This document shows, in pieces, positions 4,562 through 26,224 of a stretch of DNA of 38,893 bases (positions within the stretch are counted from its first letter, which is position 1; each line of letters opens with the position of its first letter). The notes beneath the pieces are model-generated. The model saw only the letters and a list, made by a program, of their open reading frames with translations, was not told where the DNA came from and did not search any database. The stretch spans positions 1 to 38,893 of the forward strand of contig CALCSS010000131.1 of NCBI GenBank assembly GCA_937893835.1. Direction: 5' to 3'. A program made the position numbers and the translations under genes. The stretch comes from an uncultured Fidelibacterota bacterium (GTDB lineage: Bacteria; Fidelibacterota; Marinisomatia; Marinisomatales; UBA1611).

Positions 4562-7500
4562 TTATGATGATGTATCCCCTGAGACCACAAAGACATCACT
4601 TCCCAGATGCACCAGGGTCATGATCGCATATTGCCCCGCTGTCTTGCTACCATTACGGTTGTTCAAGGTCGTACTGGACGCACTCAGCGATATCTGTCCG
4701 CTTCCATTCTGAATGATCATGCAGTTGAATCCAGATGGTAGACTTGCTGGTACCGTGATTGTTATGGCGCTACTGCTTGAGCACACGATGATCGTACCAT
4801 TGTCTGCAGCGGCCAGGGTCTTTGTGGTTCCTGACTCCGACTGTAGGTCTGCTCCATAGCCCGTGATGGCATTATCATTGAAGTCTGCCTTTCCATCGAT
4901 CACGATCGTACCATCTGTTGCGTTTGTGATCGTTTCATCATTTGCCAGACTAATTCCAGCAGCATAGACAGTGGCACCCTTGTCCTGGGCCATATAGACC
5001 GCGGTCACGTCCGCATTGCCAAGAACTACCGAATTGTTCGCCTGCCCCGATGCTCCATAGCCGATCACGGTCTGATTGGTGCCGCTATTCTCGCTTGGGT
5101 CTGCAGCATTTCCTATTATCGTATTATTTGTACCGCTGGTAATTAAATCACCAGCATAATATCCAGCCGCTACATTCCCATCCCCAGTAGCATTATACAA
5201 AGAATTTCTACCCACTGCTGTGTTATTATTGCCAGTTGAGTTGTTAAACAAGCTGTTTACTCCCACAGCGGTATTATCATCTCCAGTAGTGTTAGTCTCT
5301 AAACTCCTAGCACCAACACTAGTGTTATAGCTCCCTCCTGTAGCAGTGCTCAACATACTTTGAAATCCCATGGCTGTATTAAATGTTGATGAAGTGTTTG
5401 CCTCTAAAGCCTTGTACCCTGTCGCCGTGTTATAACTTCCTGCGTTGTTTGTAGCAAGTGCATTATATCCAACAGCAACATTCTGTTGTCCAGTATTATT
5501 TGCAGTTAGTGCGTCATATCCAACAGCAACATTATTATCACCCGTTGTGATCGCATCCAGAGCAGTTGCGCCAACCGCCAGGTTGTAGTCTGCTTCGTCT
5601 GTTGTGGATGATGGATCTTGTCCAACATACATAGAATTGTCTTCAATAAGTGCGTCAGAGAGATCGGTTATTGCGGACACCCCAGATGCAGTAGCCCATG
5701 AAAGAGCTCCAGAGCCGTCGGTCTTCAAGATCTGATTCGCAGAACCATCAGCCGTAGGAAGAACCCAGACCTGATCAGCACTTAAGGTAGGCGCTTCAAA
5801 GCCTACATAATTACTGCCTTCATAGAAACGTAATTCATTATTGCTTCCACCTACACTAAGATCGCCGGCCGTAGTTAAAGCGCCGCCATCTGCAATCGCT
5901 AAAGCATCGTCTCCATCAGTGTATTCTATGAGAGGAGTCTGTATGGATGTAGATCCTTTAAATGTGGCACCGTAAGCTGTTGCACCAATATCCTGGGCCA
6001 TGTAGACTGCGGTCACGTCCGCGTTTCCCAGAGTAACGGAGTTATTTGCTTGTCCTGTTGCTCCATATCCCACCACAGTCTGGTTACTGGTACCAGTATC
6101 AGCGCTAGGATTCGCTCCAGATCCAATAATCACATTTTGATTGGCGCTTGTTGCACTTTTTGATGATTCGTAACCTAAGGAAACGTTATTTTGCCCAGAA
6201 TTAAGAAGGTAACTACTGGCGTGTCCAACTGCTGTATTGCTATTGGCCGTTGTATTTCTCTCTAATGCACTTGAACCCAAAGCCACATTTGTGATCCCAG
6301 ACGTGTTTGATTTTAAGGCATTCTTACCCACAGCTGTATTTCGATTTCCCCCTTCATTTACAGTCAGAGCATTATGTCCAATGGCCGTATTATTATCTCC
6401 AGTGGTCACAGCGCTTAGAGCAGTTGTTCCTAGCGCCACATTATAGTCAGCAGCATCCGTCGTTGAGGATGGATCATTACCGACATACATGGAACCCGTG
6501 TCCTCGACCAGTGCATCAGAGAGACCATTTATGCTCGTTGCGGAAGAGCCCCAGGACAATGTCCCACTTCCATTGGTCTTTAATACCTGATCCGAAGAAC
6601 CATCTGCAGTAGGGAGTGTCATGGACGTTGATCCAAAACCTAGTGCAGCGGCGTAGACCGTTGCACCCTTATCTTGGGACATGTATACCGCGGTCACGTC
6701 AGCATTTCCTAGTGTGACAGAATTATCTGCCTGACCTGATGCGCCGTAGCCAACGATTGTCTGATTGGTTCCTGCTTCGTCCGAAGCCGCGGTACTTGCA
6801 CCCAATAGGGTATTCTTGTTTCCTGTTGTTATATCATTTGTACCTGTGTTTCCTGCTTGATAACCTAGCGCACTATTATAACCATCTTGGTCTGCTGTCC
6901 TGTTGGCATCATGGAGGGATTCAAAACCCATTGCTGTATTATAATCTGAAGTTGTGTTCCCGTAAAGAGATCTATAGCCCATTGCAGTATTGTTATCCCC
7001 TTCGGTATTAACCACTAAACTCTGAAATCCCGAAGCAGTATTGTAAGTACCAGATGTATTAGCTCTTAAACTTCGCCATCCAAAAGCAGAGTTTCCGCTA
7101 TTTGTATTAATGTATAAAGCTTCAAAACCAACCGCAGTATTGTAAGATCCATTAGTGGTACTTTTTAAGGCCCTGAACCCCAAAGCAGAATTCTGTTCAC
7201 CAGTCGTGTTGTCAGATAAAACATCATATCCTACTGCAGTATTCTTATCTCCCGTTGTAATAGCATCTAAGGCAGTGACCCCTACAGCTAAATTGTAGTT
7301 TGCATCATCCGTTGTTGATGATGGATCATTACCGACATACATGGAACCCGTGTCCTCGACCAGTGCGTCAGAGAGCCCATTGATATTAGATGCTGCTGAG
7401 TTGGTTGCCCAATCCCCTACACCATCCCCGTCCGAGGTCCACACCTGGCCACTTGTTCCTGCCGAAGTGATGAAATATTCATTGTTCTCTACCTTGCTCG

Positions 7501-10324
7501 CTGACAATTCACCGTCTGCAAGGTCCGCAAGATCATCATCCGCGGCCTGTTTGGCATCCAACTGCGTCTGGACAGAGGAGGTCACGCCATCCATGTATCC
7601 CAATTCCGTGAGCGTCACTGTGGACGTATCCACCTTACCGCTGGCATTGGATATCAATGCGCGAGATGCGGTCAGATCCTCACTGTCGATCGTTGAACCC
7701 GCTCCGGTCAATCCCGCTGGGTCACCCCAGTCTCCTGCACCGTCCCCGTCTGAGGTCCACACCTGACCATTCGTTCCTTCTGTCGTGATGGCGTATTGTA
7801 CCTTGCTCGCTGACAATTCACCGTCTGCAAGGTCCGCAAGGTCAGCGTCATAGGCCTGCACGTCCACACCGATCTCAAGACCAAGGTTGATACGAGCGGT
7901 GGCAATATCTGATGCTCCCGTACCACCATCTGCGACCGCAATGTCTGTTATATCTGTCACCGAGCCACCCGTGATCGCGACATTGTCTGCTGCCTGAGTG
8001 GCGATGGATCCAAGACCCAGAGAGGTTCGTGCATCGGCACCACTCTCAACGGTCCAATCAGTGCCATCAGAGACAATGATGTTCCCATCTGCATGGGCAA
8101 GACCTGCGATATCAGCCAGGTCTGAAGACTTGGCCTGTTTGCTATCCAATTGTACCTGTAGGTTCGAGGTCACACCCTCGACGTAGCCCAATTCTGTCGT
8201 TGTCACCTCTGAGACGGCTATCTTACCTTCCGTGTTCGAGATGACCGCTCTAGAGGAAATGAGGTTCTCGGTATCGATCGTGGTGGCACCACCTGTGATA
8301 CCTGCCACATCGCCCCAGTCTCCGGCTCCGTCTCCGTCTGAGGTCCATACCTGTCCATTTGTACCATCGGTCGTGATGAAATATTCTGCATGCTGTACCT
8401 TGCTGGCCGAGAGTTTTCCATCTGCGAGATCTGCAAGATCAGCGTCATAGGCCTGCACGTCCACACCGATCTCAAGACCAAGATTGCTCCTGGCTGAGGC
8501 GACGTCTGAAGCGCCTGTACCACCATCTGCGATCGCAATGTCTGTTATGTCTGTCACCGAGCCACCCGTGATCGCGACATTGTCTGCCGCCTGAGTGGCG
8601 ATGGATCCTAGTCCCAGAGAGGTCCGTGCATCGGCACCGCTCTCAACGGTCCAACTGGTGCCATCAGAGACAATGATATTTCCATCTCCATGGGCCAGAC
8701 TGGACAAGGTCACTGCATTGGAGTCCATCTTCGCATCCAACTGGGCCTGTACATCTGATGCCACATTCTCCAGGTATTGGACCTTGCTTGCTGTTAATGT
8801 ACCATCAGATAGATCCGTGAGATCAGCGTCATAGCCCTGAATGTCCACACCGATCTCAAGACCAAGATTTTGTCGGGCCGTGGTGATGTCAGAGGCGCCG
8901 GTACCACCATCTGCGATGAGGATGTCGATCACGCCAGTGACCCTTCCACCAGATATGTCCACATTCTCCGATGACTGGGTCGCTATTGACCCAAGTCCCA
9001 GTGACTCTCTGGCATCAGACTCTCCCTCTATGGTCCAGCTCGTGCCGTCAGATACTATGAAATGATCATGGTTTTGCTCCAGGCCCGCCAAGGTGGTCAG
9101 ACTGGCACTGAGATCCTGCTTTGCGTCAAGCTGATCTTGGATGCTTGATGTGACGCCATCAACGTAGTTCAATTCTGTTGAATCTGCGGTGACCCCTAGA
9201 TCCTCAAGGCTGTTGACCGGTCCGGCACCAATGGCATCGATCTGCGCCTGTACGTCGGAGGTCACATTCTCAAGGTATTCTACCTTCTCTACTGACAAGG
9301 ACCCATCTGCCAGGTCAACGAGATCCGCATCATGGGCCTGTACATCCACACCGATCTCAAGGCCAAGGTTTGACCTTGCCGTGCTATTGTCAGACGCACC
9401 GGTCCCACCATCTGCGATGGCCAGGTCCGTTATGTCAGTTATGGATCCCCCCGTGATGGAGACATCATCATAGTTTTGCTCTGCCAGCGTTCCCAGACTG
9501 TCCTTGTTCACAAAGTTCGCCAGGGTGTCACTCGACACGTAGGACCCTAGAGTATCCAGGCCCGCATACTGGCTCAGATCGGGGAGATTGGTCAGGTCGT
9601 TGTAGTCACTGGTCAGTGCCACGGCGGCAAGGTCTGAGGTCAGAGTATAAGAGGAGAGACTGTCAGACATGACATAATGACCCAGACTATCAGACATGAC
9701 ATAATGACCCAGAGTATCAGACTCTAGGATATTGGAGAGATCTGGAACACCTTCCAGGTCATCATAGCTCCCAGTGAATGCCACTGAGTCCAAGCTACCG
9801 GTCTGAGGATAATTAGAGAGCGTGTCCCTTGTCGCATATACGGACAGGTCAGGCCGATCATCCAGGTCCATATAGTTACCTGCCTGTGAGTATTTTGCCG
9901 TATCGGAGACCACAGAATAGAAGACAGATGTCATCTCCTGCCTAGGAGACAGCGTCGTCTCATCTATCGTGATCTCTAGATATGAATTGGCAGGCACGCC
10001 GCCGATGGGATTGACAACACCAAGAGTGGCGCTGATCACACCATCAGAGATGCCTATGCCCTGGGTCTCCTCCCAGAACGCTGTTCCACCGCTCAATTCC
10101 TTGAACAGTCTGAATGTGACCTGGTATGTACCGTCACTGACAGCCCTGCCATTTGCCTTTGTCAAAAGGCCCTGATAGGACAAACGCCGAGGGACCGCAT
10201 CTAGCATGGAATTTGTTCTAATTCCAGCGTCTATGACACTGCCCAATGAAGGTTCAGATTGATTGTTCTTCTGCGCAAGGGACAATGACCCCAGCAAAAC
10301 AGAGATGAGTATTAACTTTCTCAT
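4562..10324 (-). CDS. Giant surface/fibre protein: 'SYQGxL' N-terminal domain, phage tail-fibre-like GTGAxxxxxARxNLGL repeats, YadA-head-like NTAVGxxAL repeats, fibre-like C-terminus
   Basis: ORF track gives 1922 aa starting at a TTG at 10330. The ATG at 10324 has AGGAG six nt upstream and gives MRKLILISVLLGSLSLAQ. Repeats include IADGGTGASDxxxARxNLGLEIGVDVQAYDADLxDLxDGxLSxSKVQ (x4) and NTAVGYxALxxNTTGxxN (many, in three blocks). Confidence 0.9.
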   Translation of the reverse strand: MRKLILISVLLGSLSLAQKNNQSEPSLGSVIDAGIRTNSMLDAVPRRLSYQGLLTKANGRAVSDGTYQVTFRLFKELSGGTAFWEETQGIGISDGVISATLGVVNPIGGVPANSYLEITIDETTLSPRQEMTSVFYSVVSDTAKYSQAGNYMDLDDRPDLSVYATRDTLSNYPQTGSLDSVAFTGSYDDLEGVPDLSNILESDTLGHYVMSDSLGHYVMSDSLSSYTLTSDLAAVALTSDYNDLTNLPDLSQYAGLDTLGSYVSSDTLANFVNKDSLGTLAEQNYDDVSITGGSITDITDLAIADGGTGASDNSTARSNLGLEIGVDVQAHDADLVDLADGSLSVEKVEYLENVTSDVQAQIDAIGAGPVNSLEDLGVTADSTELNYVDGVTSSIQDQLDAKQDLSASLTTLAGLEQNHDHFIVSDGTSWTIEGESDARESLGLGSIATQSSENVDISGGRVTGVIDILIADGGTGASDITTARQNLGLEIGVDIQGYDADLTDLSDGTLTASKVQYLENVASDVQAQLDAKMDSNAVTLSSLAHGDGNIIVSDGTSWTVESGADARTSLGLGSIATQAADNVAITGGSVTDITDIAIADGGTGASDVASARSNLGLEIGVDVQAYDADLADLADGKLSASKVQHAEYFITTDGTNGQVWTSDGDGAGDWGDVAGITGGATTIDTENLISSRAVISNTEGKIAVSEVTTTELGYVEGVTSNLQVQLDSKQAKSSDLADIAGLAHADGNIIVSDGTDWTVESGADARTSLGLGSIATQAADNVAITGGSVTDITDIAVADGGTGASDIATARINLGLEIGVDVQAYDADLADLADGELSASKVQYAITTEGTNGQVWTSDGDGAGDWGDPAGLTGAGSTIDSEDLTASRALISNASGKVDTSTVTLTELGYMDGVTSSVQTQLDAKQAADDDLADLADGELSASKVENNEYFITSAGTSGQVWTSDGDGVGDWATNSAASNINGLSDALVEDTGSMYVGNDPSSTTDDANYNLAVGVTALDAITTGDKNTAVGYDVLSDNTTGEQNSALGFRALKSTTNGSYNTAVGFEALYINTNSGNSAFGWRSLRANTSGTYNTASGFQSLVVNTEGDNNTAMGYRSLYGNTTSDYNTAMGFESLHDANRTADQDGYNSALGYQAGNTGTNDITTGNKNTLLGASTAASDEAGTNQTIVGYGASGQADNSVTLGNADVTAVYMSQDKGATVYAAALGFGSTSMTLPTADGSSDQVLKTNGSGTLSWGSSATSINGLSDALVEDTGSMYVGNDPSSTTDAADYNVALGTTALSAVTTGDNNTAIGHNALTVNEGGNRNTAVGKNALKSNTSGITNVALGSSALERNTTANSNTAVGHASSYLLNSGQNNVSLGYESSKSATSANQNVIIGSGANPSADTGTSNQTVVGYGATGQANNSVTLGNADVTAVYMAQDIGATAYGATFKGSTSIQTPLIEYTDGDDALAIADGGALTTAGDLSVGGSNNELRFYEGSNYVGFEAPTLSADQVWVLPTADGSANQILKTDGSGALSWATASGVSAITDLSDALIEDNSMYVGQDPSSTTDEADYNLAVGATALDAITTGDNNVAVGYDALTANNTGQQNVAVGYNALATNNAGSYNTATGYKALEANTSSTFNTAMGFQSMLSTATGGSYNTSVGARSLETNTTGDDNTAVGVNSLFNNSTGNNNTAVGRNSLYNATGDGNVAAGYYAGDLITSGTNNTIIGNAADPSENSGTNQTVIGYGASGQANNSVVLGNADVTAVYMAQDKGATVYAAGISLANDETITNATDGTIVIDGKADFNDNAITGYGADLQSESGTTKTLAAADNGTIIVCSSSSAITITVPASLPSGFNCMIIQNGSGQISLSASSTTLNNRNGSKTAGQYAIMTLVHLGSDVFVVSGDTSS
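9664..9717 (-). repeat. 27-bp tandem duplication (2 copies) encoding LGHYVMSDS LGHYVMSDS
   Basis: cagacatgacataatgacccagactat followed by cagacatgacataatgacccagagtat; in frame within the giant fibre-like protein. Confidence 0.9.
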
Positions 10325-10368
10325 GATCAACTCCTTTGGTGATCTAATAATATGAAAAAAACTTATGG

Positions 10369-12710: not shown

Positions 12711-12740
12711 AAAAAAAAGATCCCAGAAAATCTGGGATCT
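12711..12740 (-). terminator. Rho-independent terminator of the minus-strand cadherin/barrel gene
   Basis: Plus strand aaaaaaaa gatcccaga aaa tctgggatct. On the minus strand this reads AGATCCCAGA-TTT-TCTGGGATCT-TTTTTTT, a perfect 10-bp stem followed by a T-run. Confidence 0.88.
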
Positions 12741-12841: not shown

Positions 12842-15187
12842 CTAGAAATTTGCCCTGTAATTAAGACCAAACCAGAATTTTGAGTCCGGCATCCAGTTCC
12901 CCTTGAGATCACTATTCTTTGATAGGTTTGATAGGGACAGACCAATGTCATCGGTGATATTCAGATTTAATTTGGTGATCATGTTGAGTCCAGAGATGAA
13001 TTGCAGTGAGAGCTCATAGAACGGCACCTTTGATACCTGAATAAAGTCCATGAACGATAGCCTCTCAATGAACTTTGGTTTTTCACCGATCTTGCCTGTC
13101 ACATCAAATCGGATATAGAAGGAACTCAGTCTCGTGAATGAGTCTCCCTCACCGTTCAGATCCTCTTGACTCCATGACACGGTATCACCAGGAGTAAGAA
13201 CCTGGTTGTAGAAAGTCCTTTCGTAGAGCTCTTGGTTATTGTCTATGGCCACTTGCCTGGTATCCTTCAAACGGTGTGCGATCTTTAGATAGTGAAACCC
13301 GGGAGCTGCTGTTATCCGACCAACAGATGGAAGTTTAACTGGCACCTCAACCGTCGTTGCGGCGAGGGCATAGCTATCCAATATATTGATGTTCTCTGTC
13401 TCATCCTTGACCGTGTTCCAATAGGCGGTGTCCGTTGTCGACACATTGGAGATATCAGAGGGTGAAAACAGTTTATCTCCAGAGCTTGGAGGATAAAAGG
13501 TAAATCCTATCAGTCCATGGAGACTGGTCCGTGTCCCAAAGAGATTGTCAATGTTGCCCCTGGCATACAGACCCAGGTAGTCGGAGCTTGCCACGTCAAC
13601 ACCATCATAGTTTCCGCTTCCTAAATCAAATGCAACTGGAAGACGCACTCCAAACTCTGATCGCTGAGTTGCAATACCCAATTCACTCGACCCGGCCAAT
13701 AGACCAGGCAGACCTATCAATGAATTTCCCACCCGCATGTTTGCCGCATACTGGATGAGATTGGAACGAATTGAAAAAGAGAAGAGGGACGACATCTTGA
13801 AATTGTTTGCGTGCCAGACGGAGAATATCGATCCGTATCCAGCCATAAGCCTCTCGCTCTCGCTCTTGTGAAATACGGTCTCAGACTCACTGGTGAGGTA
13901 CTCGTCCTTTGCGATCAATACCTTTTGAATGTCTTGGCTAAAGACCCAGTCAACTTTCTCACGATCAATGATGGAAAAATCCAATCCATTCCCATACCAT
14001 ATCTCATGTATCTCATCTGAGTTGCCCTTTTCCTGTACAATGATGATCTGATCGGTGGGGGACATCTCACGTATTGAGGTATCCTCACCATCCTCTATGG
14101 CATCACCATCGCCTGCGTTGATGTATTTCAGTGCCATATAGTTTTGTATGGCATCTTCCATGATTATGTGGTAGGGTTGATGGTCAACCGCCCACGCTAC
14201 GTACTTTCTCTTGTCCAGCGCAATGACCTCTGTCTCTTCAGCGTCCTTCACTTTTACATTGACGCTCCCGGAGACATGTAGCTTGTCATCCTTGCTGTCA
14301 ATGGCCTTGTAGGATATCTGGTAGACATTGTCCTTGTTCCTGTCCACGGGACCTTCGTAGTCGGGATCTCTCAAAAATGCAAGGTCTCCCGCACGTGTGA
14401 TCTTGAAATGTTCTTTGTCATCGCTCTTCGTTAGTTTGAATTTCACACTGGACTGGTTCTCATCGGGATCCTCAACCTTCAGCCTCCCTACGATCTTTCC
14501 AAGATTCTCAGAGTGACTGAAACTGGTCTCCTTTGCACTGACCAACACGGGAGCCTCATTCTGATCTTTGACCGTGACAGTGACATTTTCCACGATCTTC
14601 TCATCGCCAGAGTCCGAGACCTGCACAGCGATCGTGAAGGATCTCTCCTCCTCAAAGTCAAAGGGACGCTTGGTCAGCAGATTAGATCCATCAAGGCTGA
14701 AATCATCTCTATTGTCCTTTGCGAGACCAAACTTGAACTTGTCATCCGGGTCGGGATCTTCGACCTTCAATCTTCCTATCACTGTTCCCGCAGCGGCATT
14801 CTCCTTTACCTGGCTTTCACTCAGGGAGAGACCGGTGGGAGCGTCATTGACGGGGTTGATGTTTACCCGTACCTGAGCGGTTCCGGTCTCGAGGCCGTTG
14901 TCGACCTTATAGTCAAACTTATCAACACCAGAGACATCTGGCTCCGGTGTGTATAGGATCTTCTCACCTTGAACCTGGACCTTGCCCTTCTCTGGCTCAG
15001 TAACGATCTCTATGGCGACATTGCTCTTATCCTTGAGATCATCATTCTTAAGGACATTGATCTTGACAGACCCGTCCTCCTGAACCTGAGCATTGTCAGC
15101 CTTTATCTTGAGGCCTGCCTGTGAAAAGGCCACGCTCAAAATGATCATGGATGAAAAAAGAACTTTTAATTTGGTTAATATGTTCAT
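12842..15187 (-). CDS. Cadherin/Ig-like repeat protein with probable outer-membrane beta-barrel C-terminal region
   Basis: 781 aa; signal peptide; KINVLKNDDL...GVDKFDYKVDNG...VNINPVNDAP, two cadherin-like units (VKENAAAGTVIGRLKVEDPDPDDKF, SHSENLGKIVGRLKVEDPDENQSS); C-terminus MPDSKFWFGLNYRANF ends in Phe like a BAM signal. Confidence 0.8.
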   Translation of the reverse strand: MNILTKLKVLFSSMIILSVAFSQAGLKIKADNAQVQEDGSVKINVLKNDDLKDKSNVAIEIVTEPEKGKVQVQGEKILYTPEPDVSGVDKFDYKVDNGLETGTAQVRVNINPVNDAPTGLSLSESQVKENAAAGTVIGRLKVEDPDPDDKFKFGLAKDNRDDFSLDGSNLLTKRPFDFEEERSFTIAVQVSDSGDEKIVENVTVTVKDQNEAPVLVSAKETSFSHSENLGKIVGRLKVEDPDENQSSVKFKLTKSDDKEHFKITRAGDLAFLRDPDYEGPVDRNKDNVYQISYKAIDSKDDKLHVSGSVNVKVKDAEETEVIALDKRKYVAWAVDHQPYHIIMEDAIQNYMALKYINAGDGDAIEDGEDTSIREMSPTDQIIIVQEKGNSDEIHEIWYGNGLDFSIIDREKVDWVFSQDIQKVLIAKDEYLTSESETVFHKSESERLMAGYGSIFSVWHANNFKMSSLFSFSIRSNLIQYAANMRVGNSLIGLPGLLAGSSELGIATQRSEFGVRLPVAFDLGSGNYDGVDVASSDYLGLYARGNIDNLFGTRTSLHGLIGFTFYPPSSGDKLFSPSDISNVSTTDTAYWNTVKDETENINILDSYALAATTVEVPVKLPSVGRITAAPGFHYLKIAHRLKDTRQVAIDNNQELYERTFYNQVLTPGDTVSWSQEDLNGEGDSFTRLSSFYIRFDVTGKIGEKPKFIERLSFMDFIQVSKVPFYELSLQFISGLNMITKLNLNITDDIGLSLSNLSKNSDLKGNWMPDSKFWFGLNYRANF

Positions 15188-15199
15188 GATTGACCTGTT

Positions 15200-16939
15200 C
15201 TAAAAATTGACTGATATGTATGGTGAGATCAACAATGACCCACCTTTTTTATCGTTCTCATCGGGCCCCGTACCGGGATACCACTTCCAACTGCTTTTTG
15301 GATCATCTCTATCATCCTGGAACTCGATGAAAGAGTTATTGGGATAGAGCGTGCAGTCCATCCCGAGGTTGACCATCCTGTAGACATTATGCTCAAGCCC
15401 AAAGCTAAAGGCCTTGAATCCACTCGCTGATACATTGATCTGAAGATACCCCTTTGACCTCTTGTCATCTGTGACACCCTCTACCTTTGCATAGACCCCG
15501 ATCGCATCTGATCCTGTGACCCGATCGGTGACAGAGACCTGATCATCTAGATTCACATTGCCATGTAAGAACTGTGTAAAGGCCAGCCCCGCTTTCAGGC
15601 GCATGGAGCCATAAGGCTGCGAGACCCTTAGCTCTCTGCCTTTACCACTTCTTGCCCTCACAATACCCGTCGCAGCCCTGACCATCTGCTGGTCCTCAGG
15701 CGAGAGGGACTCAAGGGAGACCGCCATGGTCGTTTCACCGTCCCACTTCAATCTTGCGACGAATGCCCTGTCCTCCTCACTCAGATCCTTGATCTTGAGC
15801 ACCATGGTAAAATTATCCTTTTCACGATTGAGTGTGACCTTCTTCTTGTCACTCTTTTTTAAAGAGGCCTTGACCGTACTGCCCGAGGTGGTGGTCCACT
15901 CTCTTCCCTTCTCGGCCTGCTTGTGGGCCTTTTCATCTTTCTCGACCTGGATCGTTACAACATTACTCTCATCAAGGCCAAGAAAGAGACCATTATATTC
16001 GGCGTCATCCACAGCCCAGGTCCTACTTTTGGCGATCAACTTCTCTGCCTTGGCCTTCTGTTTCTTCTGATCCTTGATCTTTGTTCCGTAATTCGAATCA
16101 ACTTTTCTATTGATCTGAAATGTATTGCTCCAATATAATATGCCGCTGCTGGACGGAAGGACCAGATGCTTGCGGCTGAACATATCTGCCGCGGTATACT
16201 CTTGTCCATCCACATCCATATAATTGACCTGGCCGCCTAGCTTGTGAGTGTCAAACTTGAAACCAAATCCATAGTTTCCCTCCAGAGGATGACCAATTCC
16301 CTTTGAGACCGTCATTGTATTGCCTGGTACGATCAGATAGGAGCTGACTATGTCATTCGACAGCCCCAGCATCAGATTCTCTGAAAGTTGCCTGGAAAGA
16401 CCCAGGTCCGTGAATCCTTGCTCAAGCCTGAACGCCAGGCTCCCACTCTTTTGACGAATGAAGAATTTCATGGCCGTGCTCGCACTGACCTGTGAGTTTG
16501 ACCACCAAAAGGCATCTCTGGCATCCTTGAAGCTCCGCTCCTTGAACACATTGTCAACGGTACTGAATTGCTCAAGCTCTGATAGATCTCTCCGGCTCAC
16601 ATCCTTCCACTTGTACTCTCTGGACATGATGGTACTCAACTGAACTGGGTTCATCTTCTCGACCTCAGGCATGTCGAAGGAGATGTACTGACCCATTTGA
16701 TAGTCTTTTGCCTTTAGCTTCTTCAGTTCGATCTTCTCATCCTCAATGTCCATCTGGACAATGATGGAGAAAGAGGCCTGGATGCTATTCTCCTCGAATT
16801 TATCAACCTCGATCAACCTGTTTATGTAAGCCTCAATGAACTCACTATTTACGATGGGGTCTGCGACCTCCCAGAAAAGGGATTCTTGCCCATGGACCGA
16901 GACCATGAGCAGTGACCCGAGGATAACTTTTTTGATCAT
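15200..16939 (-). CDS. Probable outer-membrane/envelope protein with SHD1-like domain(s) and barrel-type C-terminus (GldM-downstream position)
   Basis: ORF track start at 16996 overlaps the upstream gene; the in-frame ATG at 16939 gives MIKKVILGSLLMVSVHGQ, a clean signal peptide just past the upstream stop. GREWTTTSGSTVKASLKKSDKKKVTLNREKDNFTMVLKIKDLSEEDRAFV matches the SHD1 pattern; C-terminus GGSLLISPYISVNF. Confidence 0.75.
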   Translation of the reverse strand: MIKKVILGSLLMVSVHGQESLFWEVADPIVNSEFIEAYINRLIEVDKFEENSIQASFSIIVQMDIEDEKIELKKLKAKDYQMGQYISFDMPEVEKMNPVQLSTIMSREYKWKDVSRRDLSELEQFSTVDNVFKERSFKDARDAFWWSNSQVSASTAMKFFIRQKSGSLAFRLEQGFTDLGLSRQLSENLMLGLSNDIVSSYLIVPGNTMTVSKGIGHPLEGNYGFGFKFDTHKLGGQVNYMDVDGQEYTAADMFSRKHLVLPSSSGILYWSNTFQINRKVDSNYGTKIKDQKKQKAKAEKLIAKSRTWAVDDAEYNGLFLGLDESNVVTIQVEKDEKAHKQAEKGREWTTTSGSTVKASLKKSDKKKVTLNREKDNFTMVLKIKDLSEEDRAFVARLKWDGETTMAVSLESLSPEDQQMVRAATGIVRARSGKGRELRVSQPYGSMRLKAGLAFTQFLHGNVNLDDQVSVTDRVTGSDAIGVYAKVEGVTDDKRSKGYLQINVSASGFKAFSFGLEHNVYRMVNLGMDCTLYPNNSFIEFQDDRDDPKSSWKWYPGTGPDENDKKGGSLLISPYISVNF

Positions 16940-16940
16940 T

Positions 16941-18380
16941 TTAATCATAATATTCGAACTCATTATCTGAAACGGTTTCTTTTTTGTATTTATCAACGAC
17001 CTTGATCCTTATCTCGGTCGTCTCACCAAACTGTGGCTCATCCATCTCAAAGCTATACTTGGCCACCCTCCGGTTCCCAATTCTCTTCTCTGGCTGTTCC
17101 TCATCAAGCTTACCGTATATGCCAGACAGAGGGACCACTGCCTTCTTGCCATTCTTATTACCATAGGTCGTCACGGTCAGCAGCATGTTGTTCGTCCCCT
17201 TGCCCATTCTCTTGAACTCCATCTTGGGTGGAGGGACCTTCCTCACCTTCACCTCATGGTTGAGACCCTTGACCGAGTTGCCATCCACAAAGGTCTCGAA
17301 CATCACCTTCCCTCTGCTCTTTGGTTTCAGCTTGGCCTGGTAGGAGTTGTAGGTCTTCGTATTCACCGCAGACCCAGATATCTTGACAGAGATCCTGTCC
17401 CTGTCCACATCCTTGACCCTGCTGTCAAACACGTAGTCCTCTCCTATGAAGATCTCCTTGTCCTCTGATGGTGAACTATACTGCGGATCGACAACGACGA
17501 TCTTGGCAGACGTGATGCTTGAACTTTTATCTCTTTTCCTTAGACCGACCACCTCGACCATCCCGCTGCTTGTGCCCTTACCGGTTATGAACGCACGGGG
17601 CAGACCTGAGACAAGATCCTTGACAAGATCCTTCCCGCTTGCTAGCTCCATGCTGAAATCAGCATCGGAGTTGACCCCACCTACACTGAAGGGGATCTCC
17701 CAGTCAAGTCCTCTGAGCACCGTGTATTTTTCCTTGTCGAACAAGACAAAGAACTCAGACTGTTGTCCGTCCATGTATATCAGGGTCACAGGGGTATCAA
17801 ACTGACGCTTGATGGAGAAACTACCCTCACGCGAGACCTCACTATCGATGATCTTCAATAACTTATCTGTGATCTTATAGTCCCCGAATGCGACGGACCA
17901 TTTGCCGTAGGTGACCGTATCAATGTCCGGGATGAACCTGATCCCCAGGTCGACGTTATAGGGTTGATTTAAATAATTCTCATCGACAGAGCTTAGATCA
18001 ACTCTCGCAACATAACGATTCTCGTCACCCTCATCCTCATAGGGCTCGACCACTACGGAGTCCAGCTCCCAATCATAATCATCATCGACACTTACCTCCT
18101 CGCCCTCGACCTCTATGATGGAGGTAGTGAAACTTGGTGTGAACTCGATCTTCCCTCTCTCATACTGGCCCTCTACATCAAAGAATAGCCTGTAATGATC
18201 TGGGTCCTCGTAATTTGATTCGACATTGTTGATCTCAACAAGGGTCTGGAGTTTATCCTGGGCAACATTCTTCAAGATATCATCCTGCCTGCGCATGTAG
18301 ACCGCCAACTCACCCTCAATGGCAAATAGACTCAGGATCGCTCCTAGATTTATCAAGAAGTAAACTTCTACTTTTTTCAT
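16941..18380 (-). CDS. GldM-like single-TM periplasmic Ig-domain protein (putative motor stator/shaft partner)
   Basis: 479 aa; one N-terminal TM (VEVYFLINLGAILSLFAI), then beta-rich periplasmic domains. YTVLRGLDWEIPFSVGGVNSDADFSMELASG and VKGLNHEVKVRKVPPPK resemble GldM D2-D4 motifs (VLYxGVDNPIxIxxPGV; FxVxxxPxP). Immediately downstream of a GldL-like gene. Confidence 0.62.
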   Translation of the reverse strand: MKKVEVYFLINLGAILSLFAIEGELAVYMRRQDDILKNVAQDKLQTLVEINNVESNYEDPDHYRLFFDVEGQYERGKIEFTPSFTTSIIEVEGEEVSVDDDYDWELDSVVVEPYEDEGDENRYVARVDLSSVDENYLNQPYNVDLGIRFIPDIDTVTYGKWSVAFGDYKITDKLLKIIDSEVSREGSFSIKRQFDTPVTLIYMDGQQSEFFVLFDKEKYTVLRGLDWEIPFSVGGVNSDADFSMELASGKDLVKDLVSGLPRAFITGKGTSSGMVEVVGLRKRDKSSSITSAKIVVVDPQYSSPSEDKEIFIGEDYVFDSRVKDVDRDRISVKISGSAVNTKTYNSYQAKLKPKSRGKVMFETFVDGNSVKGLNHEVKVRKVPPPKMEFKRMGKGTNNMLLTVTTYGNKNGKKAVVPLSGIYGKLDEEQPEKRIGNRRVAKYSFEMDEPQFGETTEIRIKVVDKYKKETVSDNEFEYYD

Positions 18381-18389
18381 GATCTGAAC

Positions 18390-18791
18390 CTATTTATTTA
18401 TGGCTTTTGAAAGGATCTCGTTCACTTCTTTTTTGATCTCTTCTCGCACTTTACCTTTTGCAAGATTAGATAATCCCTCACCCATTTGAGCCACCTTGAC
18501 CACTGCCTTTGTCAACTCTGAGAGTTCCTTGCCATTCATGTCAGCGACCCCACCTGAGGGAGCGCTATCTCCTCCACCACTATCAGGCCCAAGATTGTAG
18601 ATGCTTTGAGCGTACAGCAGCAAGAGACAGAATTCAAGTATGATGGCGCCAATGGACAAGTAGGTCATCACCCCAACATGATCAGGGTCCAGGGTCGCGA
18701 TTATGGATCTAAATCCAACTATCATGAGCAAGAAAGCAGCACCTCCATATACCATGGCCGTTCTTGCATTCATATCAGATCTGAGTTTCAT
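18390..18791 (-). CDS. GldL-like two-TM inner-membrane protein
   Basis: 133 aa: TM1 AMVYGGAAFLLMIVGFRSIIA and TM2 VMTYLSIGAIILEFCLLLLYAQSIY with Glu53 inside TM2, then a cytoplasmic-type helical tail. Compare GldL YGxGAxxVIxGALF / LTIGLxTEAFIF. Adjacent to the GldM-like gene. Confidence 0.62.
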   Translation of the reverse strand: MKLRSDMNARTAMVYGGAAFLLMIVGFRSIIATLDPDHVGVMTYLSIGAIILEFCLLLLYAQSIYNLGPDSGGGDSAPSGGVADMNGKELSELTKAVVKVAQMGEGLSNLAKGKVREEIKKEVNEILSKAINK

Positions 18792-18816: not shown

Positions 18817-20172
18817 TTATTCTATTGTAAGCGTTCGTATTGCGGTGGAGGTGTAGCATCCATCACTAATATTGAACGGGATATCATAGCTACCGACATG
18901 ACTCGAGGTTGGTATTGCTGTGATGTTCCCAGAGTTGTCCCATGAGAACCAAGACCAATTCTCGGTCACGTTAAAGTTGATCACATCATTGTTGGGGTCT
19001 TGCCACTCCACGTCAAATTGAAGCGTGTCTCCTGGGGCCATGGTCTCAGGAAAGTTCCCAAGATTGTTGAACTCAGGAGCGTCGTTGGCCAAAAGCTCTA
19101 GGTCAAAGGAGTGCTCTGTTGTCAATGGCCTGCTGGGCCTGTCATCCTCCAGGGTCACGGAGATGGATGTCACTCCCGCATCTCCATTCTCAGGGGCCCT
19201 GACACAAAAGAGCTTACCATTGTCATCGTTGTCAAAGCTCAACCACTCGGCAGACTCTGTTCCCTCGTGCGTGAATGTGACAACCTCAGTACGATTGAAG
19301 TGAGGTTTAGAATTATTTGGGTCACTCCAATTGAGATCGATGATGTCGTCATTGTCATCGTAACAGCCGACCCTTATAGAGCTTGGTATCGAGTTCGTGT
19401 TCGAGAACACTGGGGCCAAATTTTCCCGGACCTCTATGTTGATCTCCTCCTGGACATCGATCTCATCATCGGTGATGGTCAATAAGAATTCATGATTTCC
19501 AACGTCATTGCTCTCTGGTGGGGCTGAAGAACCTATGTTCCCTTCAGAGTCAATGGAGAGCCATCCAGGTAAATTAGAGTCAGAGAGTGATGGATTATCG
19601 CCTTCATCCGTGTCAGTCCATTCTATCCTTGGACTATCATAGTCAACGTACTCGTCTGCATATCTTGGTATTTGATCGAGATTGGTGAAGTACGGGGTCT
19701 CATTCACATTGATCACCTTGATCTTAACGGTAAAGTCACCGTCAAGGTCTGCAGGGCTATCATCGCTCACAAGGATGACCACATCAACCTGCTTTGATCC
19801 GGTAAGTGCCTCAAAATTGATACTGCCATAGGATAGTTCAAGATTTGTGACCCCGGAATTGGAGTTGAGGACAAAATAATTTACTGCCGTACCGTCCATC
19901 TTCTGACTACTGATCGAGTAGGTAAACTCATCATCAGGATTAGGGTCTGTCGCATTCAGGGTGCCAATGGTCAGTCCCGGGGCCGAGTTCTCCTTTAACT
20001 GGCCTTCTTCTTCATCCCCTTCGGGTTTATGCTCGTCAGCCCATTCGATACCACCTCTGGGCGGTTGTGGGTCTAGGTCCTGGTTGTTTCCTGGGTATGT
20101 CAGATCAACCGTCTCACAGCCACTGGAAATCATTATCAGGGATATCAATGTTATTGATAGATGCTTCTTCAT
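18817..20172 (-). CDS. Lipoprotein with tandem cadherin/Ig-like (He_PIG-type) domains
   Basis: 451 aa; MKKHLSITLISLIMISSGC lipobox; EGQLKENSAPGLTIGTLNATDPNPDDEFTYSI cadherin-like; repeated YxxxxWxDxxxxxxPxxSxxxLPxWLSIDSEGNIxxxxP modules. Confidence 0.83.
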   Translation of the reverse strand: MKKHLSITLISLIMISSGCETVDLTYPGNNQDLDPQPPRGGIEWADEHKPEGDEEEGQLKENSAPGLTIGTLNATDPNPDDEFTYSISSQKMDGTAVNYFVLNSNSGVTNLELSYGSINFEALTGSKQVDVVILVSDDSPADLDGDFTVKIKVINVNETPYFTNLDQIPRYADEYVDYDSPRIEWTDTDEGDNPSLSDSNLPGWLSIDSEGNIGSSAPPESNDVGNHEFLLTITDDEIDVQEEINIEVRENLAPVFSNTNSIPSSIRVGCYDDNDDIIDLNWSDPNNSKPHFNRTEVVTFTHEGTESAEWLSFDNDDNGKLFCVRAPENGDAGVTSISVTLEDDRPSRPLTTEHSFDLELLANDAPEFNNLGNFPETMAPGDTLQFDVEWQDPNNDVINFNVTENWSWFSWDNSGNITAIPTSSHVGSYDIPFNISDGCYTSTAIRTLTIE

Positions 20173-20260: not shown

Positions 20261-22048
20261 TTACGGTACTTGTGCACCATTGTACGCAAGGATGAAACTA
20301 TCAAGGCTAACCTCTGTGTCCAAGTTTAATTTTTTTCTCAATCTATAGCGCTTATTTTCCACCGCTCGGACGGAGAGGCCCGTGACCCTCGCGATCTCCT
20401 TTGTGTTCATACTCATCTTCAAGTAGCAACACAGCTTGATGTCCGCGGTACGCAGGCCCGTGTAATGTACGCTCAAACTTTCAACAAATTCGGGATATGC
20501 CAATGAGAATTGCATTTGAAACTGGTCCCAGTCGGCCGAGTCGTCTATCTTGTTCTGTATCCTCTTTCTCAGAGGGTCCAACACCTTGCGATCTGCCTTG
20601 CTATCGATCAATGACATATGATATTCCAGATCCTTGTCTATGGAACTGAGGAGATCATTCTTTGAGACGATGTATGCCGACATCTTTACGAGCTCATCCT
20701 CCTTGCTTCTCAATTCATTTTCTGCTATCTGCCTCTCTTGCTTGTGGAGCAGTCTTTCTTGTGCCCTTGCTCTTTTTTTATTTCTATGGTTGATCACCGC
20801 CATGCCCAATAATACCATCGCAAACCCACCGAAAATGAAGAAGATCGATTCCCTTGACCTTGCCTCCTCCAATGCTCTTCGATTGACATCAAGTTGGAAC
20901 TTATAGTTGAGACTCTCCAATAGCATATCCATCCGATCGGAAGATAGGGATGCCTTTTTTTCAAGTAAGATATCGGCAGTCCCTAGAGCACTTCTATCCA
21001 ATTTATTTATTCTCAATATCTCTATCTTTTTCTCTAATAGGTCTATCTCTAGGACCGAGAGACCATTTAACTCACATATTTCCAGGGCCTTGTCTATCGA
21101 CCCAAGGGCACTGTAGAGGCTGTCCTGCTGTATTTGGATCTCGGACCTTCCAAGATAATGCTTCGCCAGTTGCAGTGGAAGTCTATGCAAGAGCCTCAAA
21201 GCAGATCTTGATTCAGAGTATGCACCATCAAAATTCTTTTGATCGGCATATACCCTCATCCTGAGTGAATGATCATACCCCAAATAACTATTTTTTTTAT
21301 TGACAATGGCCTGACTCACACCATCGCTTGTAGATGAGGGGACATGACTCAACAGAGAGTCCGAGGCCTGGAGTTGTTCCAATGACATTTCATCAAGGCC
21401 CCACTCTGCGTATAGCCCTGCCAGTCTCCCGTGCTGATAGACAACTGACAGTGCCGCACCAGGGAAGGTCGCGCTGGACCCTGTCAGAGACCGCTGAAAG
21501 ACCTTGTACCTAGCAGTACCTCGCCTAACATTCAATGCCTCCTTGTAGTAGACCAGAGCATTGTCATAGTCTTTTAGACCAAACTCCACACTACCAAGGC
21601 AGTTCAATGCGACTGCCTTTCCACTCACGTTATTCGATATTTTTTGGTCTCTCCTACTGAAGATATCCAAGGCGTGAAAATATTTTTCCTTGGCCTCCAA
21701 CCACTTTTTTTGGTGTCTGTAGACATTACCAATAGAGATATCATTCCAAGGATTGATATTTGCGTGGCTTTTTTGCTTTGCATCTAATAGACTCGTCAGG
21801 GAAAGAGAAGGCAGGCCAAGTTCGAGATATATCTCACCTAGAATATGCAGTACCCTTGATTCCAGGTCTCTATCTTCTAGGTCAAGTCCCTCCAATATCT
21901 CACGGGCGTACCTGATCGCCCTATCAGGTGCCTTGGGCCTCAAGGACCTCAAGGAATCCAGCTCGGGATATTTAATAGGACCGTCCTGTGCGACCAGCAT
22001 ATTACCTACCAGTGACAGGCAGAATAATGCTAAGGCTAATTTTTTCAA
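20261..22048 (-). CDS. TPR - transmembrane - coiled coil - LuxR-type HTH regulator
   Basis: 595 aa starting at TTG (MKKLALALFCLSLVGNMLVAQ, AAGG 8 nt upstream). TPR-like repeats, one TM (IFFIFGGFAMVLLGMAVI), C-terminal GLRTADIKLCCYLKMSMNTKEIARVTGLSVRAVENKRYRLRKKLNL. Confidence 0.85.
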   Translation of the reverse strand: MKKLALALFCLSLVGNMLVAQDGPIKYPELDSLRSLRPKAPDRAIRYAREILEGLDLEDRDLESRVLHILGEIYLELGLPSLSLTSLLDAKQKSHANINPWNDISIGNVYRHQKKWLEAKEKYFHALDIFSRRDQKISNNVSGKAVALNCLGSVEFGLKDYDNALVYYKEALNVRRGTARYKVFQRSLTGSSATFPGAALSVVYQHGRLAGLYAEWGLDEMSLEQLQASDSLLSHVPSSTSDGVSQAIVNKKNSYLGYDHSLRMRVYADQKNFDGAYSESRSALRLLHRLPLQLAKHYLGRSEIQIQQDSLYSALGSIDKALEICELNGLSVLEIDLLEKKIEILRINKLDRSALGTADILLEKKASLSSDRMDMLLESLNYKFQLDVNRRALEEARSRESIFFIFGGFAMVLLGMAVINHRNKKRARAQERLLHKQERQIAENELRSKEDELVKMSAYIVSKNDLLSSIDKDLEYHMSLIDSKADRKVLDPLRKRIQNKIDDSADWDQFQMQFSLAYPEFVESLSVHYTGLRTADIKLCCYLKMSMNTKEIARVTGLSVRAVENKRYRLRKKLNLDTEVSLDSFILAYNGAQVP

Positions 22049-22882: not shown

Positions 22883-25800
22883 TCATTTCATCAAGATCAT
22901 TTTTTGACTAAAGATCCTACTACCTGCACTCAACTTGTATATATAGACACCTGCACCCACATTATTTCCGGAATTGTCATTCCCATGCCACTCGATCAAA
23001 TAATGTCCTGCCTCTTGGGTCTGTCCTACGAGATTCCTGATCATCCTACCTCTCATGTCATAGATATTGAGTGATACATCGGACTGGAAGGCAAGGTCGT
23101 AGGATATGATCGTGGATGGATTGAAGGGATTGGGATAATTTGGATGCAAGGCAAAGCTCACTGGTAGGCCATCACCCAGATCGACCCCGACCATTTCGCC
23201 ACTAAATTGACCAAAGTTATCCGCAACTATTGTCAATGGATTGGCATTGACATCACCAGCAGATATCGAGGTGATCATAAAGACAACAGATGGATTTGTT
23301 AGTGTATTGCTGAATTCTACCTCGACCTCTAGTATGGGACCTGTGTCTGGCTCGATCGCTGTGACAAAATCATATCCAAGAAAATAGAATGAACCGGACT
23401 CGGTCTCTCCAGAGATCCCGTCAATGGTCCCGTCTTCAAATCTGCCCAGTGGGGTAATGTTCGTGACCGTCATGAGGTCTGGCATATCGGTGATCTCAAA
23501 TTCTAGGATGTTCAGGGTCTCGATATTATCAATATGTATCTCGAAGGTTCCACTGCCTCCGGGAGTCATCTGGCCTGACACATTCTCGATCGTACAGCCT
23601 ACAGGTGGCTGACCTATATAAAATGAATGGGGATTGCCGACCGTGACCATTGGCAGGTTGTTGACATCTGCCAGGACCGCCTCGCTAATGGTTATGTCAA
23701 TGATCGTACCATCAGGTATTCCCGTAAGCACATCATATTCAATATCGACCAGATGGCCAACACCAGGCTCTATGGGATTTGACTGGGAGTTGTCATACGC
23801 CGTCACTCTGTAGCCTATGCCTAGATCTGCTCCCGATACGGACCAATTCTCCAGGTCGAGCAATGGGTTGAATGATAGATCGACCCCATTGATGAATGGT
23901 GGATCGGCAAGGATATCAAATTGCATCGCATAGACCGGTTGGGTATTCTCCAAGAATACAGAGCCAGTGGTTTGTGAATCGCTATTTCCATAGCCACCAT
24001 AAAGGCTCAGATACTGTGTCTCGATACCAACATCATATGTACCACTCTCTGCCGTCCAATTAAGGTCGACATAACCCACATCCTGAATAGAGGTACCAGA
24101 GGTGTAAGAGAGATTGACCGTGACCTCCTGCTCTGCTGTGGGATAGAGGACAGCTCGACAAACGGGGCCGTCTCCCGCTCCCAAGACCGTACCTACGCTG
24201 ATACCAGTAATTGCAATGGTCCCGTCTCCTTGATCCGCTATCTCTAGGGCCCAATCAGACGTTCTTTCTGTGGTAATGATATTCAAACTATTGATGATAT
24301 CAGGGTAATCCATGATCTCAAAGTAGAACAATCCTAGATCGGACTCGTTGTTTATGTAAAAGTCCAGGGTATCCATCTGCCCCGATAATGATGCGCCATC
24401 GTCAAACCATAGTTCGACCCACTCAACTGGGGTCGCAGAGATCGTCTCCGTTGGGCCAGACTCCGTACCGTCTGGGTATATTGCTGTAACATAGTAGTAG
24501 TAGGTCGTACTGTTCACAACATCCTCATCGAGATATGTGGTCACGTCACTGCCTACCTCAGCGATCTCCTCAAAGTCCGATGTGCCACTGAGTGATCGAT
24601 AGACCTTGAAAGCATCCAACTCCACTGGTCGTATCTCATTATTGATCGGATTATCCAGGTCAACCTTTAATTCGTGTGGGATTCCTCCGGGGAATTGTTC
24701 GATGACCTCTTCCTTTGGCGCGGACAGTGCCCACTCTCCAAGTTCAGTCAGTTCATAGTGTACATTCCGGCCAACCTCTCTAGCAGCAAATGTAATGAAG
24801 ACATCATCAACAGCCCATCCAGAGCCCCAGAATCCATTGTCATTCGAATGAAATGCAATATACAGGTTTGATACGCCTGCATGCTCTGAAAGGTCTACTG
24901 TCTCGGTCACCCATTCGGAGACAGGGTCCAAGGCATATACCTCGGTGAAGTTCGTACCGTCAGTGCTTACTGCTATATGTGCCGTTTGGCTATATGCACC
25001 ATCAAAGTAAGAGGCAAAGTTCAGTGTTATGTTCTCAGCGCCACTCACATTCAAGGGTGGTGTCACCATATAGTCCATGGAACCATCATCGTTTGCCATG
25101 TCATCATTTGAGCACATGTACCAGGTATGGGATGGGATGGCCCAGAACCCACTGGAACCATCTTGAGTGATAAACCAACCTTGTGCAGAGTTTGTGGTAA
25201 GGTCCCAATCATCGGGAACCGTTCCTTCTTCAAAGTCTTCTGAAAAATCCTCTGGTATCGGTCCAAATGGAGGATCCCAGCTCAACAAGACCTGAGCGTC
25301 CATGCCATCCTGCACCTGTAGATTATGTGGCTCCTCAATATAGCCAGGGCTTACAGTTACAGTACCTGAGTCTGCGCTTTCAACCCAATAGGTACCTCCA
25401 ATCCCATCTGTGACGGTGACATTTGAGAAATTGACACCTACATTTGAATTATATGCGTTCTCATGGATCATCATCTCCATGGTCGCAATTGAGCCTGAAC
25501 CAGTTTCAATATTTTGATTATCACCACTATACATGATCACCCTTGTGTCACCATTGTCCAGTTCATTAAAGTCAATGGTGAAGCCGGTCGAGCGATCTGT
25601 TGTTGTAAATCCGGTCACATCAAGATAGTTTGGCGTATCGTAGATATCAAACTGCAGGCCACCCACTTCGCCTGAATTCTGAAGATCAATATCCAGATAG
25701 ACCTGCTCTGAAACATCCCCCGTGTCTGTTGATGCACTTAGAATGATCACATCCCCTATCGTTATGGAGCCATTGACCACATCACCATCGACCAGGTTGC

Positions 25801-26224
25801 CATCGCCATCGCTTACTGAAAGGTCGAACACCTCTAATTCTACCACTGCAGACAATATGTCAGACCCGTCATAATGCAAGTTCAAAACAACTTCATCTCC
25901 GCCAGCGGCGATCTCACCTCCCAAACCATTATAAAAGACCACTCTCCCCGAGCCATCATCAAAGACAGTGTAATCTGCACTAAAATTATCCTGATCCACA
26001 GGAACTGCACCTGATAGAGTAATGATCGTAGGTAGAGCAATAAGATCAAATTGAAGACCCCCAACTGCATTGTCTGGATTTGTCAACGTTACTGGTACCA
26101 CAATATCCTCAGTATATCCACTTACCTGGACCTCTCCTATGGAAACGGTCACATTAGAGAATGCTGCACTACTGGCAGTTAAGATCATGATCAAAAGAGA
26201 AAGATTTCTTCTCATAAATGTCAT
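22883..26224 (-). CDS. Secreted cohesin-like / FnIII / choice-of-anchor-J-like protein with T9SS type-A-like sorting tail
   Basis: 1113 aa; repeated cohesin-like units (VVPVTLTNPDNAVGGLQFDL; VYLDIDLQNSGEVGGLQFDI; QTTGSVFLENTQPVYAMQFDI); EDFEEGTVPDDW...GWAVDDVFI jelly roll; tail NYPNPFNPSTIISYDL...GVYIYKLSAGSRIFSQKMILMK. Start has GGAGG six nt upstream. Confidence 0.9.
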   Translation of the reverse strand: MTFMRRNLSLLIMILTASSAAFSNVTVSIGEVQVSGYTEDIVVPVTLTNPDNAVGGLQFDLIALPTIITLSGAVPVDQDNFSADYTVFDDGSGRVVFYNGLGGEIAAGGDEVVLNLHYDGSDILSAVVELEVFDLSVSDGDGNLVDGDVVNGSITIGDVIILSASTDTGDVSEQVYLDIDLQNSGEVGGLQFDIYDTPNYLDVTGFTTTDRSTGFTIDFNELDNGDTRVIMYSGDNQNIETGSGSIATMEMMIHENAYNSNVGVNFSNVTVTDGIGGTYWVESADSGTVTVSPGYIEEPHNLQVQDGMDAQVLLSWDPPFGPIPEDFSEDFEEGTVPDDWDLTTNSAQGWFITQDGSSGFWAIPSHTWYMCSNDDMANDDGSMDYMVTPPLNVSGAENITLNFASYFDGAYSQTAHIAVSTDGTNFTEVYALDPVSEWVTETVDLSEHAGVSNLYIAFHSNDNGFWGSGWAVDDVFITFAAREVGRNVHYELTELGEWALSAPKEEVIEQFPGGIPHELKVDLDNPINNEIRPVELDAFKVYRSLSGTSDFEEIAEVGSDVTTYLDEDVVNSTTYYYYVTAIYPDGTESGPTETISATPVEWVELWFDDGASLSGQMDTLDFYINNESDLGLFYFEIMDYPDIINSLNIITTERTSDWALEIADQGDGTIAITGISVGTVLGAGDGPVCRAVLYPTAEQEVTVNLSYTSGTSIQDVGYVDLNWTAESGTYDVGIETQYLSLYGGYGNSDSQTTGSVFLENTQPVYAMQFDILADPPFINGVDLSFNPLLDLENWSVSGADLGIGYRVTAYDNSQSNPIEPGVGHLVDIEYDVLTGIPDGTIIDITISEAVLADVNNLPMVTVGNPHSFYIGQPPVGCTIENVSGQMTPGGSGTFEIHIDNIETLNILEFEITDMPDLMTVTNITPLGRFEDGTIDGISGETESGSFYFLGYDFVTAIEPDTGPILEVEVEFSNTLTNPSVVFMITSISAGDVNANPLTIVADNFGQFSGEMVGVDLGDGLPVSFALHPNYPNPFNPSTIISYDLAFQSDVSLNIYDMRGRMIRNLVGQTQEAGHYLIEWHGNDNSGNNVGAGVYIYKLSAGSRIFSQKMILMK

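What the first reader, a model, noticed from the sequence alone, without database searches (positions are those of the whole stretch)
16941..18791. Divergent GldL/GldM-like rotary motor pair
Seen: a 133-aa protein with exactly two TM segments and a lone Glu (codon 18633-18635) in TM2 (SIGAIILEFCLLLL), followed 10 bp downstream by a 479-aa protein with one N-terminal TM and only beta-rich periplasmic domains (YTVLRGLDWEIPFSVGGV..., HEVKVRKVPPPK). Established: GldL has two TMs with an essential TM2 Glu, GldM has one TM plus Ig-like periplasmic domains, and together they form the proton-driven T9SS/gliding motor in Bacteroidota. Inference: this is a remote GldLM pair. GldL is shortened (133 vs ~215 aa as remembered), so it may have been reduced to a minimal ring.
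Basis: partly seen in the sequence, partly recalled or inferred. Interest (0 to 1): 0.88.

Follow-up and report, generated by a model that had tools for sequence, protein, structure and literature searches.

The report
GldLM-like membrane pair in marine Neomarinimicrobiota
Some marine bacteria carry a compact, strictly co-inherited four-gene set in which two small inner-membrane proteins resemble the proton-driven GldL/GldM motor and sit beside two related outer-membrane-like proteins; it looks like a separate, uncharacterised cell-envelope machine rather than the known type 9 secretion motor, but that it is a motor is still an inference.

Summary
On the minus strand a 133-aa two-TM protein (18390-18791, Glu53 in TM2) is followed after 9 nt by a 479-aa protein (16941-18380) with one N-terminal TM and beta domains. 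The genome is a Ca. Neomarinimicrobiota MAG. The pair is real and conserved: 24 of 151 genomes (85% complete or better, plus the window's own) carry both genes, none only one; Glu53 is invariant down to 27% identity. It is not a demonstrable GldL/GldM member: curated HMMs, Pfam, PDB sequence search and Foldseek find no GldL/GldM, and the TM hairpin matches GldL no better than shuffled profiles. The only positive is a marginal colinear match to GldM D2-D4 (E about 0.01-0.03). The GldM D1 helical bundle is absent. It is probably not the phylum's T9SS motor: SprA is in 94/94 high-quality genomes, this pair in 9/94, canonical GldM and GldN nowhere except apparent contaminants. Two paralogous OMP-like proteins follow; the first occurs in essentially the same genomes, and a terminator closes the unit. 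Best reading: a GldLM-like, probably proton-driven trans-envelope device, separate from T9SS, driving an outer-membrane pair. Motor function is inferred. In passing: IMG/VR phage contigs carry a canonical gldL-gldM pair.

The parts
18390..18791 (-). GldL-like protein, 133 aa: two TM helices, Arg28 in TM1, invariant Glu53 (18633-18635) in TM2, short cytoplasmic helical tail
   Evidence: conserved in every genome that has the partner
16941..18380 (-). GldM-like protein, 479 aa: one N-terminal TM, then four periplasmic domains (beta domain plus two helices, then three beta domains)
   Evidence: 40-42 of 245 phylum genomes; marginal match to GldM D2-D4
15200..16996 (-). OMP-like protein 1 (listed 598 aa; real start probably about 16945 or later): signal peptide, N-terminal domain, probable beta-barrel ending in Phe
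   Evidence: found in essentially the same genomes as the pair; no Pfam, NCBIfam or PDB match
12842..15187 (-). OMP-like protein 2, 781 aa: signal peptide, cadherin/Ig domains (only in this lineage), then a core of about 460 aa paralogous to OMP 1
   Evidence: paralogy to OMP 1: hhalign probability 96.9%, E 1.4e-10
12718..12740 (-). Intrinsic-terminator-like hairpin (10 pairs, TTTTTTT tail) just after OMP 2, closing the unit
18817..20172 (-). Lipoprotein-like protein with cadherin/He_PIG domains, 451 aa, 25 nt upstream of the GldL-like gene; probable lineage-specific first gene of the operon
   Evidence: present in the window's family, replaced by other genes elsewhere
20261..22048 (-). TPR protein with LuxR/sigma-like C-terminal helix-turn-helix, 595 aa; conserved neighbour in the window's family only, possible regulator

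Best explanation
The two genes encode an inner-membrane complex that works like GldLM. The two-TM protein would form a ring whose invariant Glu53 takes up and releases protons, and the single-TM protein would be a central shaft whose periplasmic domains carry motion or conformational change to the outer membrane. Its partners there are probably not the T9SS GldKN ring but two paralogous outer-membrane proteins encoded directly downstream, so this is a separate four-gene trans-envelope device present in some Neomarinimicrobiota. Shown: gene pair, TM segments by hydropathy, invariant Glu, obligate co-occurrence, operon order, the OMP pair and their paralogy, absence of canonical GldM and GldN, patchiness against universal SprA. 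Inferred: ring and shaft assembly, 5:2 stoichiometry, proton use, mechanical output, beta-barrel nature of the partners, cargo. Whether it descends from GldLM or converged on it is open.
For: Both genes co-occur without exception in 24 of 151 genomes in fixed order. Glu53 is invariant and Arg28 near-invariant across 26 sequences down to 27% identity; in GldL, E49 in TM2 is strictly conserved and needed to harvest the proton gradient (PMC8986121). The single-TM partner has no acid in mid-TM, unlike MotB/ExbD-type shafts, and an invariant Glu at the periplasmic end (E24), where GldM has conserved E31. Four periplasmic domains, as in GldM (PMC5790014; AF2). Marginal colinear similarity to GldM D2-D4. 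OMP 1 is in the same genomes apart from contig-edge cases, OMP 2 is its paralogue, and a terminator ends the unit after OMP 2. In one genome the next gene after the module has PD40, CarboxypepD_reg, M23 and OmpA domains (L058), much of the domain set I recall for T9SS PorE. TonB_C domains occur beside the module in f30 and apparently in L036 (read by eye).
Against: No statistically sound homology to GldL or GldM. No direct evidence of oligomerisation, ion flow or movement. An invariant Glu in a TM helix can be structural. The barrel assignment rests on signal peptides, C-terminal Phe in several members and weak strand periodicity (z 2.2-3.2 in four members, about 0.5 in the two from G130).
Confidence: 0.5

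Rival explanations
1. Non-motor scaffold: the two inner-membrane proteins are a static trans-envelope tether or assembly platform for the two OMP-like proteins, and Glu53 is a structural residue that pairs with a basic residue such as Arg28.
For: No homology to a motor is provable. Arg28 and Glu53 are conserved together. In f12 the upstream genes include a ParA-like ATPase and a protein with a weak GspB/SctD-like domain, as in assembly platforms.
Against: A lone invariant acid in mid-TM2 of a two-TM protein paired with a single-TM multi-domain partner is the GldLM arrangement; simple tethers rarely need an invariant buried Glu (general knowledge).
Confidence: 0.27
2. One reading: a true, highly divergent GldLM that powers the T9SS of this organism.
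For: The organism has SprA (G000:C82) and T9SS cargo tails in the window. Weak GldM D2-D4 similarity.
Against: SprA is in 94/94 high-quality genomes but the pair in 9/94. GldN is absent. The SprA locus carries no such genes in three genomes. The GldM helical domain D1 is missing.
Confidence: 0.13
3. A MotAB/ExbBD/TolQR-type stator.
For: TonB_C domains near the module in f30 and apparently in L036.
Against: The single-TM protein lacks the conserved mid-membrane Asp, the ring protein has two rather than three or more TM helices, and no ExbB/MotA/ExbD/MotB profile matched.
Confidence: 0.03

Closest known systems
GldL/PorL (TIGR03513), Bacteroidota T9SS and gliding motor
   Same: Two TM helices, one invariant Glu in TM2, basic residue in TM1, GA motif in TM1, cytoplasmic helical tail, gene directly upstream of the single-TM partner
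   Different: No detectable sequence homology; short tail; no GldN gene beside it and no GldK-like (sulfatase-modifying-factor type) neighbour seen
GldM/PorM (TIGR03517)
   Same: One N-terminal TM, basic residue at its cytoplasmic end, conserved Glu at its periplasmic end, four periplasmic domains of which the last three are beta; marginal colinear profile match to D2-D4
   Different: The helical D1 bundle is replaced by a beta domain plus two helices; fails the HMM, PDB and Foldseek tests
T9SS core (SprA, PorV, GldKLMN)
   Same: The organism has SprA and T9SS cargo; one module is followed by a gene with PD40, CarboxypepD_reg and OmpA domains
   Different: The module is patchy while SprA is universal; it sits at a different locus, with its own OMP pair
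MotAB, ExbBD, TolQR, AglRQS
   Same: Ring-plus-single-TM layout if the motor reading is right
   Different: No Asp in the single TM; different TM count; no sequence match

Membership tests
GldL (TIGR03513) | Match to the curated GldL profile | tested here: not met
   No match in own genome; none among 26 family members
GldL (TIGR03513) | Two TM helices with an invariant Glu in TM2 | tested here: met
GldL (TIGR03513) | Profile-profile similarity of the TM hairpin above chance | tested here: not met
   hhalign 10.9 against shuffle mean 10.1, maximum 16.4; 17 of 60 shuffles as good
GldM (TIGR03517; Pfam GldM domains) | Match to curated profiles | tested here: not met
GldM | Single N-terminal TM plus four periplasmic domains, the last three beta | tested here: met
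   GldM layout from PMC5790014
GldM | Helical D1 domain after the TM | tested here: not met
   AF2 shows a beta domain 48-149 plus helices 155-185
GldM | Sequence or fold similarity of D2-D4 | tested here: inconclusive
   hmmsearch E 0.011, next rank after true GldM among 838 ORFs; hhalign E 0.009-0.03; Foldseek top 50 without GldM
T9SS GldKLMN module | Linked gldK and gldN | tested here: not met
   No GldN in the phylum above cut-off except an apparent contaminant; neighbours are OMP-like proteins; GldK was not searched in the phylum
T9SS GldKLMN module | Co-distribution with SprA | tested here: not met
   94/94 against 9/94 high-quality genomes
5:2 rotary motors | Pentamer around dimer, ion-driven | not testable with these tools
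   No complex prediction or experiment available
MotB/ExbD/TolR | Conserved Asp in the single TM | tested here: not met

The most novel reading that the evidence does not exclude
A previously undescribed class of proton-driven two-protein motor outside Bacteroidota, related to GldLM only by a very ancient split or by convergence, which drives its own pair of outer-membrane proteins independently of T9SS, for example for surface movement of an adhesin or for outer-membrane transport.
Probability: 0.35. Interest if true: 0.82.

Novelty: new variant of a known kind. Interest (0 to 1): 0.6.

Why it matters
A 2022 review states that GldLM occurs only in Bacteroidetes (PMC9389320), and GldLM has no proven relatives among the other 5:2 motors. 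A separate GldLM-like module in another phylum would give the first outgroup, show that such motors can serve outer-membrane partners other than GldKN, and raise a direct question: all high-quality Neomarinimicrobiota genomes have SprA, yet canonical GldM and GldN were found only on apparent contaminants, so what powers their T9SS?

Tried and rejected
Curated HMMs for GldL/GldM in the own genome: nothing. PDB profile searches: only influenza HA coiled-coil and CTLA-4-like Ig chance hits. A TM-only profile, made to remove the coiled-coil bias, still found no GldL. Foldseek on the full model and on the confident C-terminal two-domain model: generic Ig hits; the viral library likewise. hhalign on TM regions: no better than shuffles, so the eye-catching GA/K/E alignment is not counted as evidence of homology. 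T9SS motor identity rejected on distribution. The two canonical GldM hits in the phylum (G166:C9, G103:C43) are on short contigs carrying clear GldKLM(N) and look like Bacteroidota contamination. Plasmids hold no relative of the window protein. The first genome search used a wrong Pfam number (PF13687 is DUF4153) and says nothing about GldL.

Full report
Observation. The two ORFs exist as described on the minus strand. The upstream one (18390-18791, 133 aa) has two hydrophobic segments with Glu53 the only acid in the second (codon 18633-18635). The downstream one (16941-18380, 479 aa) starts 9 nt later, has one N-terminal TM, and is predicted by AlphaFold2 as a long TM helix, a beta domain with two helices, and three further beta domains (mean pLDDT 82; C-terminal 184 residues alone 92.6).

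Where it comes from. The window is contig C131 of an incomplete genome of 2.0 Mb.

Is it more than chance? Yes. A search of 245 phylum genomes finds the 479-aa protein in 42 (single sequence; two of these at E about 0.003) or 40 (profile). In genomes at least 85% complete (plus the window's own) the 133-aa family is confidently present in exactly the same 24 genomes. Across 26 sequences, down to 27% identity, Glu53 and the GAAFL motif are invariant and Arg28 nearly so. The order GldL-like, GldM-like is fixed. G117 and G228 carry two copies. Genomes share ancestry, so these counts are not independent events.

The module. Directly downstream are two proteins with signal peptides, here 15200-16996 and 12842-15187. 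Core versions of about 420-450 aa lie in the same place in distant families. Profile comparison shows that the two are paralogues (probability 96.9%, E 1.4e-10). The first occurs in 23 of 151 genomes: 22 of the 24 pair-carrying genomes plus G150. The exceptions are contig-edge cases (G119 and G022, where the pair lies at the contig end, and G150, where the gene itself is cut). They look like outer-membrane barrels (C-terminal Phe in several members, modest strand periodicity), but no family or PDB match confirms this. A strong terminator-like hairpin follows the second OMP gene (12740-12718), so the transcription unit probably ends where conservation ends. Neighbours differ by lineage: cadherin lipoprotein, TPR/LuxR protein and T9SS-tailed proteins in the window's family; a ParA-like ATPase and a weak GspB/SctD-like protein in f12; a TonB_C protein in f30; a protein with PD40, CarboxypepD_reg, M23 and OmpA domains in G130.

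Is it GldLM? By architecture it fits: TM count, TM2 Glu, basic residue in TM1, no acid in mid-TM of the partner, conserved Glu at the periplasmic end of the partner's TM, four periplasmic domains. In GldL, E49 in TM2 is strictly conserved and required for proton harvesting (PMC8986121); GldM has four domains of which D1 is helical (PMC5790014). By homology tests it is not established. NCBIfam and Pfam do not call it, nor do PDB sequence profiles or Foldseek. I built canonical GldL and GldM profiles from two contaminant contigs, PDB chains, a phage contig and a Parabacteroides plasmid. The TM hairpin scored no better than column shuffles (17 of 60 as good). The GldM D2-D4 profile ranked this family next after true GldM among 838 ORFs, but only at E 0.011, and hhalign aligned D3-D4 colinearly at E 0.009-0.03, with 1 of 100 shuffles as good. 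That is suggestive for GldM and nothing for GldL. The helical D1 is missing. I therefore do not file it as a GldL/GldM member, while keeping 'works like' as the best explanation.

Is it the T9SS motor? Probably not. SprA is in 94 of 94 high-quality genomes of the phylum, the pair in 9 of 94. Canonical GldM appears in 2 of 245 and GldN above cut-off in 1 of 99, on contigs that look like Bacteroidota contamination. SprA loci of three genomes, including the window's own, show no such genes. The tree places an f15 copy inside the window-family clade and a G117 copy inside f12, as expected for a mobile or repeatedly lost accessory module; short contigs and binning errors are a caution.

Mechanism proposed. 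Ring of the two-TM protein, shaft of the single-TM protein, proton uptake by Glu53, motion or strain passed through the periplasm to the two OMP-like proteins. Only anatomy, conservation and linkage are shown; assembly, proton use and cargo are inferred. The main rival is a static scaffold. In the window's family a 1922-aa surface protein with 17 NTAVG-type repeats lies downstream of the terminator; an adhesin as cargo is possible but untested.

Noticed in passing
L102:2557-4593 and L103 (IMG/VR contigs IMGVR_UViG_3300023240_000170 and IMGVR_UViG_3300022857_000101): Adjacent canonical gldL (133 aa) and gldM (530 aa) on contigs with a phage tail protein upstream and a phage GroES-like protein downstream, which suggests a phage-borne T9SS motor pair. 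The two contigs are identical over 2,151 bases.
   Followed up: partly
window 4562-10330 (-): 1922-aa secreted protein with 17 NTAVG-type repeats in three blocks and GGTGA fibre-like motifs, resembling a fibrous adhesin or tail fibre; its N-terminal part is conserved in close relatives.
   Followed up: partly
whole phylum (Neomarinimicrobiota): SprA in 94/94 high-quality genomes although canonical GldM and GldN are essentially absent; the power source of this T9SS is unknown.
   Followed up: partly
L058:4641-7568 (+): Protein with PD40, CarboxypepD_reg, M23 peptidase and OmpA domains, 12 nt after the four-gene module of G130; recalls T9SS PorE.
   Followed up: no
L046:12652-17030 (-) and the same genes in L045, L047, L048, L050: Five genes upstream of the module in f12, including a ParA-like ATPase and a weak GspB/SctD-like protein.
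   Followed up: no
L036:16959-20402 (+); L057:4588-5475 (+): TonB_C domain beside the module in two lineages: Pfam hit in L057, read by eye in L036.
   Followed up: no
L064 (G166:C9), L065 (G103:C43): Short contigs with canonical Bacteroidota-type gldKLM(N) inside Neomarinimicrobiota bins; probably contamination.
   Followed up: partly
window 2373-4202 (-) and 22883-26224 (-): Proteins with T9SS sorting tails (Por_Secre_tail/FlgD_ig) on both sides of the operon.
   Followed up: no
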